From Plazaster borealis (lineage: Eukaryota > Echinodermata > Asteroidea > Forcipulatida > Labidiasteridae): a stretch of 64,000 bases of DNA. The notes under the pieces were generated by a model, which worked only from the letters and a program-made list of their open reading frames with translations, was not told the DNA's origin and searched no databases. Shown one piece after another: positions 3,560-58,039 of this stretch (its first letter is position 1; every line of letters starts with the position of its first letter). The position numbers were made by a program, and so were the translations under genes. The stretch is from contig CM037472.1 of NCBI GenBank assembly GCA_021014325.1, forward strand, positions 18,895,063-18,959,062. The letters run 5' to 3'.

Positions 3560-3725
3560 CCGGCTAGCAGCCGCTGGAATCCTCCAATATCCTCCACTCT
3601 GTGGCAACACAACATTAAACATTGGACTTTGATAAGATTGCATTTAAGCATGGAGGTAGGAATTAAATGAATTAAGTATGCCTGGCTCAGTGATAGGCAA
3701 TTGTTATTTGGGCCTACTGTCCTCA
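3560..3725. repeat. Dispersed repeat G, copy with a palindrome remnant
   Basis: CTCCAATATCCTCCACTCT, GGACTTTGATAAGATTG and TGCCTGGCTCAGTGATAGGC recur at 22600-22740 and 41075-41200. The half palindrome CATGGAGGTAGGAATT at 3649 is absent from those two. Confidence 0.65.
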
Positions 3726-5477: not shown

Positions 5478-5940
5478 TAAACTGCTCACAAAAAGTTAGG
5501 AAACTTTTTTTAATCATGTATATTTTTATTATTTATTACCCTCTTGTATTATGTTGCATATCAATAGAAAGCTGTTTTTCTTTAAAATGATACCAAATGT
5601 GCAATGATGACATGTTGTTGGACTTGGCCACATTAATGAGAATGAGACAAAGTCACAAATCAAATGTGCCAAAATTAGCAATTTTGGGTTACTCTGTGAA
5701 CAAACAAATTGACACTGTAATTCAAACATGCGGTAATTTTGGCACATTTGATTTGTGACTTTGCCTCATTGTCATTCATGTAGCCAAATTCAGCAACATG
5801 TAATCATTGCAAATGTGGTATCATTTTAAAGAGGAACACTTCAGCTTTGCATTGATATATAACATAAATACAAAGAGAGTAATAAATAATAAAAATATAC
5901 TTGATTAAAAAAAGTTTCCAAACTTTTTGTGAGCAGTTTA
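5478..5940. mobile_element. Long-arm palindromic MITE with TA ends (Tc1/mariner-like)
   Basis: A roughly 200-bp arm (5480-5676) starting AACTGCTCACAAAAAGTT is repeated in inverted form at 5733-5938, about 85% identical by eye, around a spacer of about 55 bp. The element is bounded by TA on both sides, as expected for Tc1/mariner-type insertion. A transcript would fold into a long hairpin. Confidence 0.88.
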
Positions 5941-11164: not shown

Positions 11165-14100
11165 GTAAAAAGAGGGTTTGCAGTTACTTATAAATAAAGG
11201 GGCAGAGGAAACTTTTGGTTGTCTTTTTTTTCCATATTGTTTAAACCGTTTCATTGTCATCGTCTACAATTCATGTGTCATGGTACAGTTTCGGTTTGTC
11301 TTGAAATTGCAGTGTTTATTCCTTGATTTTAAAAACAACAACAACTGTACATTGTGTGGTTTTTCTGTGAATATGACACACCTATCTTGATGGTTTGGTA
11401 CAAACAGTATCATTTTCCAGGTGCTCCGTCATCTAGTTGTGCTTCCTGGAGAATTCTGACAAATTGTCAGTTTGGTCTTTCTTCAAGTTAACCAAAAATA
11501 ACCCTAATTTATGTTGCACCTTGGCTCGGGGAGAACGTACTTTCCATGTTCAGTGTCATGTGTACTGTAGTAAGTCTTTTCAACTTAATACACACAAGTG
11601 CATGCAGGTTTCTTTCCATGCACAATAAAAGTTGTCAGACTGCATTAATATTACATAAACTGCGCATTGCATACTGTAAGTCATAATGATGTTTTCTACA
11701 TTTAAATACAATTCTACAGAGCTACATTATGGCTAAGTTTGTATGCATAGATACAGTATGTATTTTGATTTGTACACTTAGAGAGATCCAGGAAGGCAAT
11801 AGCCAGTGTTTGGTAAAAGGGTGTCCAAATTTGCTGGAAATTTAAAAACTTGGTGTCCAAATTGTTCACTTACAATATGTAAATGACAGATAAAACAGGG
11901 TGTCCAAATTTAAAACAGGGTGTCCAAAAGACACCCATACACACCCCTCTGGCTAATGTAACACTATGCAGGAAGGTTTCATTGTTGAATCATGGCTGAA
12001 TAAACTTACGTCCATTTTGTTCTGATCTCAATTTTAAAATGTGTTGATGCACATTGAGCATGGAGGAAGGAAATCGGACCATGCATATAGCTTTGGATGA
12101 TACTACAATAACTGATGAATCACATTACAATTCTGTGCATTCAATGTTTGTGGATGTGTGTATGATGTATGTAGGCCTACAGTTCAAACACATGTGCAAT
12201 TTGTTATTTATTGTAGCTTGGCAGGCAAAAATGTACAACCATGAAGTAACAACGGACTCTCTCCAAGCCAATGTGCAATATTTACGGTTATTTTTTGTTA
12301 ACTTGAATGAATATAGACTAAACTGACAATGTCAGAATTCTCCAGAAGGCACAATAGTACATATGTTTTTAAAAGAAAGGTGTACTTGTAGAATATGGGA
12401 TACCCCGAATGCTAATCACATAATGTGAATTCACTGAATGTACATGATATCTAGGCCTACAGGCATATTTGTGGGTATTGGTTGTCTGTTTTCATAACAT
12501 ACATTATACGTACACAATGTACATTTAGGTCCAGCACGTATGTAGGGTAGTTTCCATAGCATGTATGTGATTAATCAATCTGTAAACTTGATGAATAGGA
12601 TTCAATTTTATATCAGCTTACAGTTTGTTTCACAATCACAATGTACCCCCATGTCACCATGGTGTACACTCAGTAGTTATGACGTCAATCGAGGTTGGGT
12701 TTATTGTTATTGTACACATACATACATTTATATGACGGGTGTGAACTGTGGTGTACTGCATTGGATTTTAATGTGACAACCAGGAAATTACATACACTGG
12801 TATGTCAGTACTATAGAGTGACCTTGAGTGAAACTGATGGCTAACTATATGGTCTAACCCTAATTCTCCATGGTCTAACCCTTTGCTCTAGTAGGCGTTA
12901 CCAATTCCTAAAACCAGTTAAGACAATAAACTTCAAACTTACAAATCGTCTGACCCATGACTGTAAGCATAAGCTTGTATAGATAGTGCAGTTTTGTATG
13001 GATTTTCTAAAAACTGGTCTTGCATTAATATTTTGGAGCTCGTGGTAAATGGAGTTTATTGATCGAGAGTGGTCTCCAAAGTAATTGTTCATGGCAAAAA
13101 AAACATTCAGATTCTATGAAAAACCTTTGTTTGTGGATTTTGATTTATCGTGTTAACATTTTTATAAATGCATTTTTCATTTAATGTCCTTTTGATCCCT
13201 ACGGGTATGAAATTGCAATTAACGACAAGTAGTAGCCTTATTATATTTTTGGCAATGACAACAAAACCTCAAAAAACACATTCGTCTATATAATAGGAAA
13301 AGATTTCAGGAAATGTTTTGACTGCGCACAACAAATAAGCCTAGCCTATATTTAATTGTGTTTATTTTATTTTATTTTTTAATTATTTTGTTTTACTAAA
13401 AAAAAATTGTATACTTGCAAGCACATATTCATTCCATTTCAAGTCACAGATTTATGAACTATAGGCTATGTGAAAGAACCAGGCTGTAAAATATTTCATA
13501 CGTTAAAATGGCATTTTTAATCATTTTAAATTTGGTCTAGTAAAAAAGGGTTCTGGTCCAGTATCAATGTTTAGCAACAAGCCCTGCTGTCTTTTTTGCA
13601 CAAATTGTCAAGCAAGTTCCATAAGTAGGGTGAAGTAAAAAAAAACATGTTTAGTGTCCCCGCCCGCTTCTTTTTGGGGGGACGCATTGATTTTCTTTCA
13701 AAATGAGATTTAAAAACCATAAAATGTCAACTAATACATCAGAAAATAAAATACTTGCAAGTCAGAACTTAGCCTGTGACGGTTACACGCTTAAAAACAG
13801 ATCGTTTAGTTACACATTTGCATTTATTCATGTGAAAGTGAGCTACAGTGCTCAGGGTTTTTAATACTGTTATTAACAAGCCAAAAATTCATAAAACCAC
13901 TGTAAATTATGTTCAATGTCTTGTCTAACACGTTTCTTCCATTATTGTGTGTTGAATAGTGGAAAACCAAGGGTTGTTTCGAAATTTTAAAAAGAATGGC
14001 GGCCGTCTTGAAAATAAAAAATAAATGCCTCTCCCGCTTCCTTTTTTTTCAGGAACCCGGACGCTAAACCTGTTTTGTTTTTTACTCGGCCTAACACATG

Positions 14101-23100: not shown

Positions 23101-26100
23101 TTGTTTAACCATGGAGTCCAGAAGTGAATTGTGTTTGATTAGTTTTCTTCCCCCCACCCCCCCCCCCCACTCTTGGGCTGTGCAATGTTTGTTTATCCAG
23201 GGTTTGAAAATTACATTAAAACCTTGTACATTCGATTTTTGCAATGTATCAATAACTCGACCGGGTTCATGGTATATTACCAGTGATGTCAACATGTAGG
23301 TTTCTGAAGGAAGGAGACATTTCCAAGGAACCTGTTGTATTGATCCATACTGTAAGGCGAACTGACAAAAACAAAACAAAACACTTATGTTTCCTATTAT
23401 CCCACCCAACCTTGAAAACCACACAGAAGCTGTATCTTTTTATTACAAAGATACAAAAAAGTTAAACTTATGTTGCGGGCCCAAAGCCTAAGTTTTTTGT
23501 ACATCGTCCTGTTTTTGTTAAAAGTTGGTCAGCGCTGCATTCTTAAACCATTCAACCAATGAATGTACAATGCTGATAGGTAGCAGACCAGGAATTTCAT
23601 CTTTGAGAGGGCAGGTTTTTTTTCATTTTGCAAAGGGCACTTCCACTGGAAAAGTCAATGGGAAACTTGGAAGAGTTGCATGGCATCCGTGGCCTCCTTG
23701 TAATATCCAGGGCTGAGGTAGTCCACTTTTAAACCTGACGTTTTCTCTAGTTAGCTGTTACAAATGAGTGCGCAACAAAATAATAACTGCCCACCGAAAT
23801 AAAAAGTCAGTGTAATGGGAAACACAGCTGTCTTTTTGTTTGGCCTATTAATGTAACTAATTCTGTAAACTTATGTGAGGCAGTGTTTAACATTTTTATT
23901 TAAAAAATTTGTCCTTTTATAACCAAAGGTAACTTCAAGGCAGGAGAGTTTGGTACCATCTTGAAGAAGCACACGCAGAAAGAGCAATGGGCCCTGAGGA
24001 AGCTGATGGCTGACATTCTAAGACCGTACATCCCTGAGTACAAAGGGCTCGTCGAGAAGAACTCAGAGAGTATCCTTTTCAAATGTTGCTGCTGCACAAA
24101 GATTCCTGTAAAGCTCTTGATTGCTTTTGCTAAGAGTTTCAAGCAGAAGATATTGTAAAAACAAATTTGTTATGTGTTGAGTTTAAGATACGTGTTACAA
24201 AAAGCCCATTAGCACCAACAAAAAATAACTTTTCCAATCTGTTAGAGATTCAGAATCTGTTATTACGGATCGTAACAGCTTTTTTGAAAGTGGGTCATGT
24301 GGTATATATACTCATTTTCACTGGTTCCCGCTTTGCAAATGAATTGAAGCAATAGATGTCATGTGCAGATTGTGAATACACTTTTATTTGAACTAGGTTT
24401 TGTTTTGGGATCCACACAGTTCAGACTTTTCCTTAATCCAAGTTGTTACCTTCAGAATATGTTCAAATGCAAGATCTTCTGGGTGATTTTGACAACCCGT
24501 CAGTGATGGACTGTAAAATCGGAACCAGGTGAAGTAATCTATTGTACTTGTTTAATTTAAGGCTAGACAAACTCAACGAAAGACGACACAAGAATGTGTT
24601 TGTCCCTATAAACAGGCTTTAATAATGATAGTAAAAATAATAATACTAATAACGATATGAATGTGTATTTATTATGCACCCTTTCAAGCCAAAGTGGGCC
24701 CCTCATAGCACCTCACAGTATTATCAACTGGCCCCTCAGCATTCCTAAACCCATCTGAACTCCTTAGGAGTATGCTGCACCGGCAATGGAATGGGCGCAC
24801 AGGTTGGTTATCATTCACAACAATAATCGCTACCCTCGCAGGTACCCAGTTACACCTGGGTGATGAGAAGCAATTGTAGTAAAGTTTATTGCTCAAGGAC
24901 TCAAGTGTCACGACCGGGATGTGAACCCACACTCCGGTGATTAGGCCACCAGAACCTGAGTTCAATGCTCTAGACCGCTCGATAATGACACGCCAGCGAT
25001 TATACACGAAATCAGTTGTATAAATTCAAAATGATTTAAAAAGTTAATATAATAACCAATTGCCCAGAGAAGTTTACCCACCTGAAGTTGCTTTCTTTTT
25101 TGAGAAAATGATGACCTAATGTGGCAAGTTAAAAATACCACCTTCAAGCGAAAGGCTTCTTTAAAGATGCAGAAGAAACTATAATAATTATATATTGTCT
25201 TATATAGCTCATGCATCTACCAATAAGGGACTCAAGGCACTTGAACAAATTGAAACACTTTAAGACAAGTTTTTAAATTAAATTTTATTTTATGAGAACC
25301 ATTTATGTAACACCTTATAAGGATCTACAAGGTGCTGCGGCGCATTTAGCAGCCACTGCCAAAGAACCCAGGGGCAAACTCCTTCTCTTAGCGATAAGAG
25401 TAACTGGGTTCTTTTACGTGCATTACACAACACACGGGACCTACGGCTTTTTCATCCCATCCGAAGGACTAAGCTATAATGGTTAAGTGTCTTGCTTAAG
25501 GACACAAGTGTCAAGACTGGGACTTGAACCCACACTCTGCTTGTCAGAAACACCAGAGTGTGAGTCCAGTGCTCTTAACCGCTCGGCCACGATGACTATG
25601 TCGTCGTTAAAGGCACTTGGAAATTGTCAAAGACTAGTGTTCTCACTTGGTGTATCCCAACATATGCATAAAATAACAAGCCTGGGCTCAATTGGTCATC
25701 GAAGTTGCAAGAAAAAGATGAAAGAAAAAACACCCTTGTTGTACAAATTTGTGTGCTTTCAGATAGGAATAAAAACTTCTTGCAAGACGTTTTTATTATT
25801 TTAGTGAGAAATTAGCTCTTTCTCAAAAACTACGTTACTTCAGAGGGAGTCCTTTCCTACAATGTGTTATACTATCAACAGCTCTCCGTTGCTTGTTACC
25901 AAGTAAGTTTTTATGCTAATATTTGTTTTGAGTCATTACCAAACGTGTACGATAACTTTAAACTCCATTTACTAAATGACAGGGATCTAAGAATTTAAAT
26001 ATGTGGTCATTCAGGGGTTTTTTTTCTGGAGGACTTGAACAGGCTTCCTTTTTTTCCCTCTCCCTGAGTTGGATCTGATCATCAGCCAACCATTATGTAA

Positions 26101-52139: not shown

Positions 52140-52330
52140 TATCAGAGACGGCACACTTAGGCTGTTTGTGGTTGTGATTTCCTTCCTTCATGTGATAGCC
52201 CGAGCCAACTTTGCTGCATTGCTTGTAGATTGCTGTCACTCGATACGTCCAGGATGGACAGTTTGTACCAAGTGACTGTGGACAGCTACTTCAATTAGCG
52301 GTTTGTATCTGTGGAGACAACTGCGTTAAG
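52140..52330 (+). other. Possible 5' non-coding exon of the sulfotransferase-like gene
   Basis: A consensus donor GCGTTAAG|gtaagc stands at 52330/52331, and a strong acceptor (pyrimidine tract then cttttag|) at 53841/53842 precedes the coding exon. The left boundary is a guess. The stretch has no long open frame, which fits untranslated leader. This is inference from splice sites alone. Confidence 0.35.
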
Positions 52331-53841: not shown

Positions 53842-54024
53842 AGAAACACACTTCTGTGAAGGACGGGTTGATGCTACAAGCTGAGAAGAGACACGCACTG
53901 GAAAGCACTATTTCCAACTTTGCAAATTCTAACTTAGGCAGTAGTCTAGCGCCAAGGCTGGAATTAGCATTTCTGTTCTAGCCAAGTGTCCTTAACAACA
54001 CAGAGCGCAACATCCCATGGTATT
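53842..54024 (+). other. 5' UTR portion of the sulfotransferase coding exon
   Basis: It runs from the predicted acceptor at 53842 to the first ATG of the long frame at 54025. The frame has an in-frame TAG at 53965. The codon at 53986 is GTG, not a normal eukaryotic start. Confidence 0.45.
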
Positions 54025-55143
54025 ATGAGGCCGAAACGTGTTTTTATGTTAACTGCAGGGTTTCTTATGAGCCTCACCTCAATGTTATTTCTGAGACATG
54101 ACGTCTTAGGCGGTAACTTCAAAAGAAATGTGAGTTTTAACAACATGTTCAGCCCAAAGGTTGAGAATGTGTACCATGGCCGTCAACCGAGTTCAGTTGA
54201 GCTGAGTTGTTACAGACTCAATAACTCGTGGGCCATTGAGGAACTCAATCAAGTCAACCTTAAATGTCGTAAGCACTTCCCACAGGCTCTCATCATCGGA
54301 GCCAAGGGCTGTGGATCTTGGGTTCTGAGGAACCTCCTAGCCGTGCATCCAGGGGTGGCGACCCCAATGCAAGACACTAACTTCTTCTCTACTTACTACT
54401 ACAGAGATTTGGCATGGTACTTCAACCGAATGCCTCACGCCACTGAACTGCAACTCACAATAGAGCAATCCTCTGAATATCTCACCTACCCAGGTGCAGC
54501 GGAAAGGATCTCGAAAGACATCCATGACGTTAAGATTATTGCGTTGTTGTGTAACCCAGTAAAGCGTGCCTTCAATGAATACTTCCAAACCAAGGGAGAT
54601 GAGTACCTCTTAAACCGCACAGACAACACTAAATTAACTCCCAAACAAGCTAATGATAAAGTTGCAGTCCAAAAAGCATGGGATGATTATGCGAGAGGTA
54701 ACCCCTCTCAATTCCTAAGGAAGAGCACTTTTCAGAAGACAGTACTCGACAAAAGAGGAGAAATTGTACAAGATTCTCTTTATATTGACAAAGGGATCTA
54801 CGCTAAGCATGTGAAACAATGGCTTCATCATTTCCCGAAACAGCGTATGCTTTTATTGGATGTAGACGGAGACTCTATTCTCAAACATCCTGTTCCACTG
54901 CTAAACAAAGTCGAGAAATTTCTTGGATTGTCTTCATTCTTTCATGAGGACAATTTCCTTGTTGATAAACAAACTGGCATGAACTGTTTGGCAAAACCCT
55001 TCAGCGCCTGTATCGATTTGAACAGCAGAGGGCGCTCTAAACAACAGATGACCAAAGAATTTCAAGAAAAACTTACAACTTTTTATATGCCTCATAACAA
55101 GGAGCTAGAAAAGTTATTAAATCTAACACTGATGTATCATTAA
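54025..55143 (+). CDS. Golgi type II membrane sulfotransferase-like protein (HS3ST/NDST-like)
   Basis: This 372-residue single-exon protein starts at the first ATG of the frame. R2-P-K-R5 followed by a hydrophobic stretch (6-23) is a type II signal anchor, and a short stem with N-linked sequons follows. P86-QALIIGAKGCGSWVLRNLL occupies the PAPS 5'-phosphosulfate loop, and L174-LCNPVKRAFNEY the 3'-phosphate site. K-G-I-Y-x-K-H-V-K-Q-W-L-x-x-F-P, D-V-D-G-D-S-I and V-E-K-F-L-G-L follow, as in glycosaminoglycan sulfotransferases of the heparan sulfate 3-O type. The late Cys pair (M-N-C-L … S-A-C-I) matches the conserved disulfide. Against my memory of that family, the loop Lys is displaced, R-D-P is C-N-P, the following Ser is Asn, and the E-K-T-P Lys is Gln. 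It may be an altered-specificity enzyme or a pseudoenzyme. Substrate unknown. Confidence 0.88.
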   Translation: MRPKRVFMLTAGFLMSLTSMLFLRHDVLGGNFKRNVSFNNMFSPKVENVYHGRQPSSVELSCYRLNNSWAIEELNQVNLKCRKHFPQALIIGAKGCGSWVLRNLLAVHPGVATPMQDTNFFSTYYYRDLAWYFNRMPHATELQLTIEQSSEYLTYPGAAERISKDIHDVKIIALLCNPVKRAFNEYFQTKGDEYLLNRTDNTKLTPKQANDKVAVQKAWDDYARGNPSQFLRKSTFQKTVLDKRGEIVQDSLYIDKGIYAKHVKQWLHHFPKQRMLLLDVDGDSILKHPVPLLNKVEKFLGLSSFFHEDNFLVDKQTGMNCLAKPFSACIDLNSRGRSKQQMTKEFQEKLTTFYMPHNKELEKLLNLTLMYH

Positions 55144-55882: not shown

Positions 55883-56227
55883 AGTGGCGTGTCGTGGCCG
55901 AGCGGATAAGAACACCGAACTCAAGCTCTGGTGTTTCTGATCAGCAGAGTGTGGGTTCGAATCCCAGTCGTGACACTTGTGTCCTTAAGCAAGACACTTA
56001 ATCACATGCTTCGTCCTTCGGATGGGACGTAAAGCCGTTGGTCCCGTGTACTAGGATTGGTAGTGCACGTAAAAGAACCCAGAACACTTATCGTGGAAGA
56101 GTAGGGGTTTAACCCCGGTGTTTCTGGTTCACATTGCAAGCACCCTTATTTACAGGTTTCCTCAGGCTTGCGAGCTACAGTGATTAAGTTCACTTGTGAG
56201 GCATCCTTGGTTTCATTACCAGAAATG

Positions 56228-56314: not shown

Positions 56315-56356
56315 TGATTACCATGGAGGTAGGAATTCCTACCTCCATGTGATTAC
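56315..56356. mobile_element. 28-bp perfect palindrome flanked by 7-bp direct repeats
   Basis: The palindrome occupies 56322-56349; its left half is CATGGAGGTAGGAA. It is flanked by TGATTAC at 56315-56321 and 56350-56356. Confidence 0.85.
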
Positions 56357-56425
56357 AAAGTCATGCAGGGAAAAATACAAATAGGCCTACATTATATTCA
56401 TAACACCACAATGAACATTCTCAGC

Positions 56426-56796
56426 TTAAAGGAACATTACAAAATTGGTTTTTGCTAACAAAACAGTTAAGCACTTTATATAATCCACCATATACATAAA
56501 CTGACAAACCTGTAGAAGTTTGAGATCGATCGGCCATCTGTGTCACGAGAAAAAAGTGAAAAACCGATTACACATTTGCATGTGTTATACAATGGATGAA
56601 TTAAAACGCTCATGAGCGATAAACTCCAAGTCCAATCGGAAATTAGTTTTATTTATTTCTCATCAAATATGGCATTTCAGATAGAAATATTTCTAGGGAA
56701 GTTTTCTACTATCATCATCATTAGACCGTGTAAGTTTTATGTAAATCTGTGATCTTAAAGAAAATTTTAATTTCCAGTTCTGTAACGTTCCTTTAA
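56426..56796. mobile_element. MITE family B variant
   Basis: The ends TTAAAGGAACATTACA and TGTAACGTTCCTTTAA invert. The core has CCATATACATAAACTGACAA and CACGAGAAAAAAGTGAAAAA. Confidence 0.85.
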
Positions 56797-57398
56797 CATT
56801 ATAATTGTTTTCAGTTATTCTGGAACTGCATACTTTGTGGATACCCTTCGAATCAACGCCAACTAACGCCCAAGTAGATCCTTCATTTTGATTGGAGCTA
56901 GGATTGTAAGTCACGCGGCGTTCACTATCAAAACCGTGGCCTACGTCATCATAAACATTGCATTGTGGTACTATTCACTCTGTATTTTCGCCCCATGTAA
57001 TAATTATACACAGCAGTACAACATGCCCACGCTAGGGGATGCCAGAATACATGCGATATTGTACAATTTGTTTATTGGTTGACTGTGCAGTTTTATATTC
57101 TAATCTATTATGATAAAGATCTGCTTATGTTCGGAATGTTTTGCATTCGTGCAATATGAAGAGAAAATGTTTATTCTTTGAAAGATGGAATAGTTATTTC
57201 ATTCAATTCGGCTTTACCCTCATTGAATTGAATGGAACATTCCACATTAATGACCTCATGAAAATATTCTCATCATTACATTCATAAACATTCATCATTA
57301 TTTGTTTAACATTTTTCTGGAAATATTGTACAAACAGGAAACGGCTAGGATTATTTCAATGAGTCACATGCGGGTATGTTTTCGAAAAATACTCATTA

Positions 57399-57450
57399 GG
57401 CCTAGCATGGAGGTAGGAATTAAATTTAATTCCTACCTCCATGGGCCTAG
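57399..57450. mobile_element. 38-bp perfect palindrome flanked by 7-bp direct repeats
   Basis: The palindrome occupies 57406-57443; its left half is CATGGAGGTAGGAATTAAA. It is flanked by GGCCTAG at 57399-57405 and 57444-57450. Confidence 0.85.
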
Positions 57451-58007: not shown

Positions 58008-58039
58008 TTGTACGGGTATTACATGTAATACCCGTACAA
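58008..58039. repeat. 32-bp perfect palindrome
   Basis: The left arm TTGTACGGGTATTACA inverts exactly with TGTAATACCCGTACAA. Outer ACTTAG/CTAAGT arms extend the hairpin with small bulges. Confidence 0.9.

What the first reader, a model, noticed from the sequence alone, without database searches (positions are those of the whole stretch)
56315..57450. Ultra-short palindromic insertion family with 7-bp direct repeats
Two perfect palindromes about 1.1 kb apart share the arm CATGGAGGTAGGAATT (28 bp at 56322-56349, 38 bp at 57406-57443). They differ only at the centre: one has an added AAATTT-type core. Each is flanked by its own exact 7-bp direct repeat (TGATTAC; GGCCTAG), so they look like true insertions, not duplications of one locus. 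At under 40 bp they are far smaller than ordinary MITEs. Who moves them, and how, is unclear.
Basis: partly seen in the sequence, partly recalled or inferred. Interest (0 to 1): 0.82.

Follow-up and report, generated by a model that had tools for sequence, protein, structure and literature searches.

The report
Scars left by departed jumping genes
The tiny palindromes look like repair scars, left where a larger P-type transposon once sat and was cut out, rather than the smallest of mobile elements; this animal genome keeps hundreds of copies of their shared arm, a natural record of how broken DNA was mended.

Summary
In detail: perfect 28-bp and 38-bp palindromes sharing one arm, each inside its own exact 7-bp direct repeat. 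A third, lopsided copy lies at 3649-3669. The genome (560.6 Mb) holds 358 exact hits of the 16-base arm, against 1 for the reversed control. I read 137 distinct sites: 69 have an exact 7-bp duplication (shuffled control mean 1.3, max 5), but only 6 of those 69 are perfect palindromes. What lies between the duplications varies from 13 to 80 bp: overlaps, blunt joins, small and large inserts, one holding a 33-nt inverted copy of its own flank. This is the pattern of end joining after P-element excision in Drosophila (PMC2895639), which leaves 17 nt of each end; here about 19. Two sibling P-superfamily families in this genome have similar termini; one shows 32-45-bp scars besides surviving copies. 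No intact donor was found: all 83 hits of the 19-nt end were read. Conclusion: excision scars of a P-type transposon, not self-mobile ultra-short elements.

The parts
56315..56321 (.). left 7-bp target-site duplication TGATTAC of scar 1
56322..56349 (.). scar 1: 28-bp perfect palindrome; two transposon ends joined through the self-complementary AATT (4-bp overlap)
56350..56356 (.). right 7-bp target-site duplication TGATTAC of scar 1
57399..57405 (.). left 7-bp target-site duplication GGCCTAG of scar 2
57406..57443 (.). scar 2: 38-bp perfect palindrome; two 19-nt ends joined without loss
57444..57450 (.). right 7-bp target-site duplication GGCCTAG of scar 2
3642..3648 (.). left target-site duplication ATTTAAG of scar 3 (6/7)
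3649..3669 (+). scar 3: lopsided 21-bp scar, about 19 nt of one end and 2-3 nt of the other
   Evidence: the same 21-mer with exact duplications at L075 and L113
3670..3676 (.). right target-site duplication AATTAAG of scar 3 (6/7)
12059..12083 (+). candidate old scar of sibling P family B: first 16 nt identical to the terminus of the transposons in L184 and L186; flanks match only 5/7, and its bases 17-20 differ from that terminus (they match an arm in L048)
52177..52192 (-). candidate one-sided remnant of family B: 16 nt identical to the terminus of the copy in L183; no duplication seen

Best explanation
Each palindrome is an excision scar. A P-superfamily transposon with termini CATGGAGGTAGGAATTAAA... 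inserted and duplicated 7 bp of target. Its transposase later cut it out with a long stagger, leaving about 19 nt of each transposon end as 3' single strands on the two chromosome ends. Because both ends carry the same sequence, they were joined head to head by end joining: through the self-complementary AATT (28 bp), through other short overlaps (32, 33, 25 bp), end to end (38 bp), after losing most of one end (21 bp), or with templated filler (45-80 bp). SHOWN: insertions with 7-bp duplications; identical outer ends with variable centres; a retained arm of about 19 nt at most, apart from bases that repair could supply; templated filler at one site; sibling P families with similar ends, one of them with its own scars. 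INFERRED: that the donor was itself a P element, the stagger length, the repair pathway (alternative end joining, perhaps polymerase theta), and germline timing.
For: (1) Products computed from two identical 3' overhangs of the arm before any genome copy was seen included 25-, 32- and 33-bp sequences unknown from the window; all three were then found. The six predicted sequences of 21, 25, 28, 32, 33 and 38 bp occur with exact 7-bp duplications at 2, 2, 2, 2, 16 and 2 sites. (2) 69 of 137 distinct sites with exact 7-bp duplication, control mean 1.3, max 5. (3) Junctions of those 69: 30 overlap, 14 blunt, 9 with 1-3 nt inserted, 16 with more, the classes tabulated for Drosophila P excision in Rad51-deficient (spn-A) flies, with the same shapes, e.g. 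CATGATGAAATAAC(AT)GTTATTTCATCATG and CATGATGAAATAA(CAT)G between 8-bp duplications (PMC2895639, passages). (4) After the 19-mer the next base is not fixed: T 40, C 13, A 13, G 5 of 71 sites. (5) L122 carries between its arms a 33-nt inverted copy of its own left flank. (6) Empty sites: L050's scar lies in a repeat whose copies at window 32852-32732 and 55380-55249 lack the insert. (7) Duplication consensus [G/C]TNNNA[C/G], palindromic (T at position 2 in 52 of 69, A at 6 in 55 of 69); Galileo, P superfamily, makes 7-bp duplications of consensus GTAGTAC (PMC2775673, passages). (8) Same-genome control: L042 is 5704 bp with 42-bp inverted repeats CATAGATATAGAATTAAAATAAC... and an 8-bp duplication, with THAP, Tnp_P_element and RNase H domains. 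Its 18-nt end occurs 88 times, many as pairs 1.0-5.7 kb apart and six as pairs spanning 38-45 bp. Of 8 short scars read, 6 have 8/8 duplications. (9) Three P-transposase loci (L183, L184, L186), about 99% alike, become alike at or within 6 bp of CATGGAGGAAGGAAAT (CATGAAGG... in L183); 14 of 16 bases equal the arm. (10) Sites cluster: 11 neighbour pairs within 100 kb, 3.95 expected, p 0.0015, as local hopping (PMC7776569, passages) would give.
Against: No intact donor with this exact end was found: all 83 hits of the 19-nt end were read (50 + 33) and no 12-mer outside the arm is shared after it by three or more different sites, so the transposase that cut is unknown. 37 of 137 sites lack even a 6/7 duplication nearby, and the 6/7 class has a high chance background (control mean 18, max 33). 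43 of the 69 clean sites are not among the six predicted sequences; the predicted 16- and 18-bp products were not seen, though the 16-mer probe could not find them. Up to 198 of the 358 arm hits were never read. Of three long CATAG pairs checked, two have 8-bp duplications and one (L172/L173) has none; 2 of its 8 short scars lack 8/8. The clustering includes a duplicated locus (L021/L022) and one 88-bp pair (L101). The inferred stagger differs from the 17 nt of Drosophila. No relative's genome or second individual was available.
Confidence: 0.91

Rival explanations
1. Ultra-short mobile palindromes: the 28-38-bp units are themselves transposed by a transposase that needs only the ends.
For: True insertions with 7-bp duplications, identical outer ends, hundreds of arm copies. 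The 33-bp form recurs at 16 sites with exact duplications.
Against: No constant unit: 63 of 69 clean sites are not perfect palindromes and lengths run 13-80 bp; lopsided scars have lost one end almost wholly; one insert is copied from the local flank; P transposase binds internal 10-bp sites (PMC7776569, passages), for which a 28-bp palindrome of two ends leaves no room (inference).
Confidence: 0.03
2. MITEs of a P-type family that later lost their middles by replication slippage at the hairpin, not by excision.
For: Palindromes are prone to internal deletion (recalled); some sites carry mutated arms.
Against: Among the 83 hits of the 19-nt end no shared interior was found. Retained ends stop at about 19 nt at many unrelated sites, which slippage does not predict, and filler copied from a flank points to a break.
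Confidence: 0.04
3. Excision scars, but of a transposon from another superfamily with a long stagger.
For: The donor itself was not found.
Against: Ends resemble two P families in the same genome; the palindromic 7-bp duplications fit Galileo's; the 17-nt stagger is called unusual and atypically long in P elements (PMC7776569, passages).
Confidence: 0.05

Closest known systems
Drosophila P-element excision junctions repaired by end joining (Chan et al. 2010, PMC2895639; passages read)
   Same: Target duplication + up to 17 nt of each inverted repeat, joined by short overlaps, bluntly, or with templated filler; same one-sided product shape
   Different: There induced in laboratory (Rad51-deficient) flies; here natural, in a genome assembly, 7-bp duplications, about 19 nt retained, many sites
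CATAGATATAG... P family in the same genome (L042)
   Same: Terminus aligns with the arm (3 mismatches and 2 single-base gaps over 19 nt); short scars in target duplications
   Different: Long copies survive; 8-bp duplications; scars keep about 18-24 nt of an end
Family B in the same genome (L183, L184, L186)
   Same: P-superfamily RNase H domain; terminus 14/16 identical to the arm in L184 and L186
   Different: Two copies stay about 99% alike for over 7.5 kb; right end not reached, inverted repeat and duplication not shown
Galileo (P superfamily, Drosophila; PMC2775673, passages read)
   Same: 7-bp duplications with palindromic consensus GTAGTAC
   Different: Long inverted repeats, surviving copies; no scar family in the passages read

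Membership tests
P superfamily (as the donor of the scars) | Transposase with THAP, HTH, RNase H-like and GTP-binding domains | tested here: inconclusive
   Not found next to this arm; present in families with similar ends. By comparing listed coordinates, no PF21787 match on C1-C7 lies within 100 kb of a listed arm
P superfamily (as the donor of the scars) | 7-8-bp target-site duplication | tested here: met
   7/7 in 69 of 137 sites, control mean 1.3
P superfamily (as the donor of the scars) | Palindromic target preference | tested here: met
   [G/C]TNNNA[C/G]
P superfamily (as the donor of the scars) | Inverted repeats starting CAT (seen in some members, not universal) | tested here: met
   CATGGAGG here; zebrafish Pdre2 CATACCTGTCAAC (PMC10983969, passages), Drosophila CATGATG; Galileo's ends not checked
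P superfamily (as the donor of the scars) | Long stagger leaving about 17 nt of each end at the donor site | tested here: met
   About 19 nt retained, inferred from scars only
MITE | Inverted repeats and target duplications | tested here: met
MITE | Copies share one unit with a constant interior | tested here: not met
   Lengths 13-80 bp, centres vary; no non-arm 12-mer shared after the 19-mer by three or more different sites
MITE | Mobilised in trans by a related transposase | not testable with these tools
   no second individual or species

The most novel reading that the evidence does not exclude
A ghost transposon: a P-superfamily family cut out of essentially every place it occupied, so that it is known in this genome only from an estimated 270 or so scars; either its last copies were lost after a burst of excision without replacement, or the host or a sibling transposase cleared it.
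Probability: 0.4. Interest if true: 0.75.

Novelty: new variant of a known kind. Interest (0 to 1): 0.62.

Why it matters
A dispersed repeat family here seems to be made of repair junctions, not of mobile units, and could be filed as tiny MITEs. Each copy records one insertion and one repaired break, so natural junctions by the hundred could show the stagger of an unseen transposase and the end-joining habits of an animal germline without an experiment. My searches for such a genome-wide set of natural P-type scars listed none that I could tell from titles and abstract starts (at most 20 shown each); most subscription papers are not held.

Tried and rejected
Searches that led nowhere: the arm as text in papers, 0 papers; palindrome and arm-gap-arm patterns in viral contigs, 0; the latter in prokaryote contigs, 1 hit in Arenibacter algicola between two ORFs, terminator-like and without a 7-bp duplication, judged unrelated; Rfam, 0 at gathering. 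Inverted repeats (12 or more) with 7-8-bp duplications: none at L046 nor L181-L187; one weak case each at L047 and L048 (arms 11-12, duplication 6/7). I first modelled a 20-22-nt overhang; later data favoured about 19. L048 (721-aa THAP9-like frame; PDB 6p5a, E 1e-39) has no convincing inverted repeats in 10 kb and was not taken as the donor. The palindrome at 58008-58039 was considered another scar and dropped: no duplication. Slippage was considered for scar 3 and set aside when the same 21-mer turned up at L075 and L113 with exact duplications.

Full report
WHAT IS THERE. A third copy at 3649-3669 was missed; it keeps 19-20 nt of the arm and the last 2-3 nt of the other side, between ATTTAAG and AATTAAG. 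A 6/7 match at a 21-bp offset occurs at 217 of 63965 positions, so that duplication is only suggestive alone; the same 21-mer with exact 7/7 duplications was later found at L075 and L113.

A MODEL MADE BEFORE THE GENOME DATA. P transposase cuts 17 bp inside one strand (PMC7776569, passages), so each chromosome end keeps a 17-nt single-stranded piece of the inverted repeat (PMC2895639, passages). Treating the arm as such an overhang, I enumerated the products of joining two identical overhangs by at least 2 bp of overlap. With 20 nt there are 13; they include the three window sequences and 25-, 32- and 33-bp products not yet seen, besides 4-, 16- and 18-bp ones. The overhang was taken from the window copies, so the fit to those three is partly circular; the other lengths were real predictions.

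THE GENOME. When the genome search answered, the arm had 187 + 171 exact hits and the reversed control 1 + 0. Only the first 100 places are listed; paired hits among them spanned 33, 32, 38 and 28 bp. I read those 100 places, then the other hits of the 20-mer (50 in all; 31 new stretches, 21 of them with 7/7 duplications) and of the 19-mer plus A, C or G (33 in all; 22 new stretches, 9 with 7/7). Reduced to distinct 15-bp left flanks there are 137 sites; 69 have an exact 7-bp duplication and 100 at least 6/7; with partners shuffled 1.3 and 18.0 on average, at most 5 and 33. Some of the 137 lie in repeated host sequence and are not independent. An earlier count on 87 sites gave 41 and 61, control 0.66 and 6.9.

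JUNCTIONS. Of the 69 clean sites 30 are overlaps, 14 blunt, 9 have 1-3 extra nt and 16 more; some of the last are mutated arms, as one search shows. Lengths run 13 to 80, the commonest 33 (18 sites), 32 (8) and 28 (7). By exact sequence the predicted products of 21, 25, 28, 32, 33 and 38 bp occur with exact duplications at 2, 2, 2, 2, 16 and 2 sites, 26 in all; those of 16 and 18 bp at none, but these lack a full 16-nt arm and the probe could not find them. Only 6 of 69 are perfect palindromes. After the 19-mer the next base is T 40, C 13, A 13, G 5 of 71: no fixed twentieth base, so the retained end seems to stop near 19; where the base is T it can come from the other arm, and a twentieth A is not excluded. 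At seven further sites the arm runs straight into the duplication (lengths 11-14), like the long-overlap class of the Drosophila table. L128 holds 19 nt of TTTAA-like filler between two full arms. L122 holds, between its arms, a 33-nt inverted copy of the DNA just left of it; of the 15 inserts of 6 nt or more tested it is the only one with a long flank copy. Templated filler is reported for P-element breaks, partly polymerase-theta dependent (PMC2895639); that polymerase theta acts here is inference.

EMPTY SITES AND TARGETS. Flanks joined without the insert match uninterrupted copies of the same host repeats, for example L050 against window 32852-32732 (86.8% over 121 columns, one 2-base gap beside the junction) and L074 against copies in L008, L093 and the window without a gap. 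The duplicated 7 bp follow [G/C]TNNNA[C/G].

THE KIN. PF12017 has 9 matches in the genome and PF21787 35. Six of the nine lie in five stretches of one family; its best copy (L042) is 5704 bp with 42-bp inverted repeats and an 8-bp duplication and P-type domains. Its first 19 nt align with the arm with 3 mismatches and 2 single-base gaps; 31 of 60000 random window 19-mers, and 8 of 2723 starting with CAT, score as high, true copies included. Its 18-nt end occurs 43 + 45 times: pairs 1.0-5.7 kb apart, six pairs spanning 38-45 bp, one of 180 bp, and single hits. I read 18 stretches: of 8 short scars (32-45 bp) 6 have 8/8 duplications; of three long pairs two have 8-bp duplications and L172/L173 none. 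So long copies and scars of one family stand in one genome. A second family (L183, L184, L186; about 99% alike over 5.6 kb, two of them over 7.5 kb) becomes alike at or within 6 bp of CATGGAGGAAGGAAAT (CATGAAGG... in L183), with differing flanks, and may explain the weaker arm matches in the window at 12059 and 52177. Besides the eight stretches, seven more P-transposase loci were fetched; the others were not.

WHAT IS MISSING. After the 19-mer no 12-mer outside the arm is shared by three or more different sites. So no intact donor with this exact end was found in the assembly, which has 717 contigs and may be incomplete; a donor whose end differs by a base is not excluded. Up to 198 of the 358 arm hits were not read; lacking the 19-mer, they cannot be intact copies with this end. 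At 85 sites per 175.8 Mb (C1-C7) the genome would hold about 270 sites.

WHERE. Sites cluster within 100 kb (11 neighbour pairs against 3.95, p 0.0015) and within 5 kb (4 against 0.21), some of them duplications; within 300 kb the excess is weak (16 against 11.2, p 0.08). Local hopping of P elements over about 50-150 kb is described in PMC7776569.

JUDGEMENT. These are most likely excision scars of a P-superfamily transposon.

Noticed in passing
window 58008-58039: Another large perfect palindrome (32 bp, TTGTACGGGTATTACATGTAATACCCGTACAA) without target duplication; the hairpin continues imperfectly outward (ACTTAGT / ACTAAGT).
   Followed up: partly
L122 (G000:C14:13729228-13729378): A scar whose 45-nt filler contains a 33-nt inverted copy of its own left flank: a natural templated repair insertion.
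   Followed up: yes
L048 (G000:C18:31088800-31098799): A 721-aa uninterrupted P-transposase-like (THAP9-like) frame without convincing inverted repeats in 10 kb: perhaps a domesticated gene.
   Followed up: partly
L183, L184, L186: A P-superfamily transposon family, copies about 99% identical over more than 5.6 kb, apparently young; right end not reached.
   Followed up: partly
L045 (G000:C5:16155500-16165499): A 1.2-kb segment with 16-bp inverted repeats CAGTGGCGTCACCAGA in an exact 8-bp duplication CATTTAAA sits inside a P-element copy.
   Followed up: no
window 25508-25596 and 55886-55976: The two ARAGORN tRNA calls overlap the two arms of one inverted repeat (25480-25592 / 55892-56004), so probably tRNA-derived repeats, not tRNA genes.
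   Followed up: no
window 53986-55143: Open frame of 385 aa, sulfotransferase domain, closest solved structures heparan sulfate 3-O-sulfotransferases.
   Followed up: partly
window 5573-5838: Long hairpin: 105-nt arms, 89% complementary, 56 nt apart.
   Followed up: no
L013, L014, L078: The same left flank with scar centres that differ: a scar apparently copied along with a host repeat.
   Followed up: no
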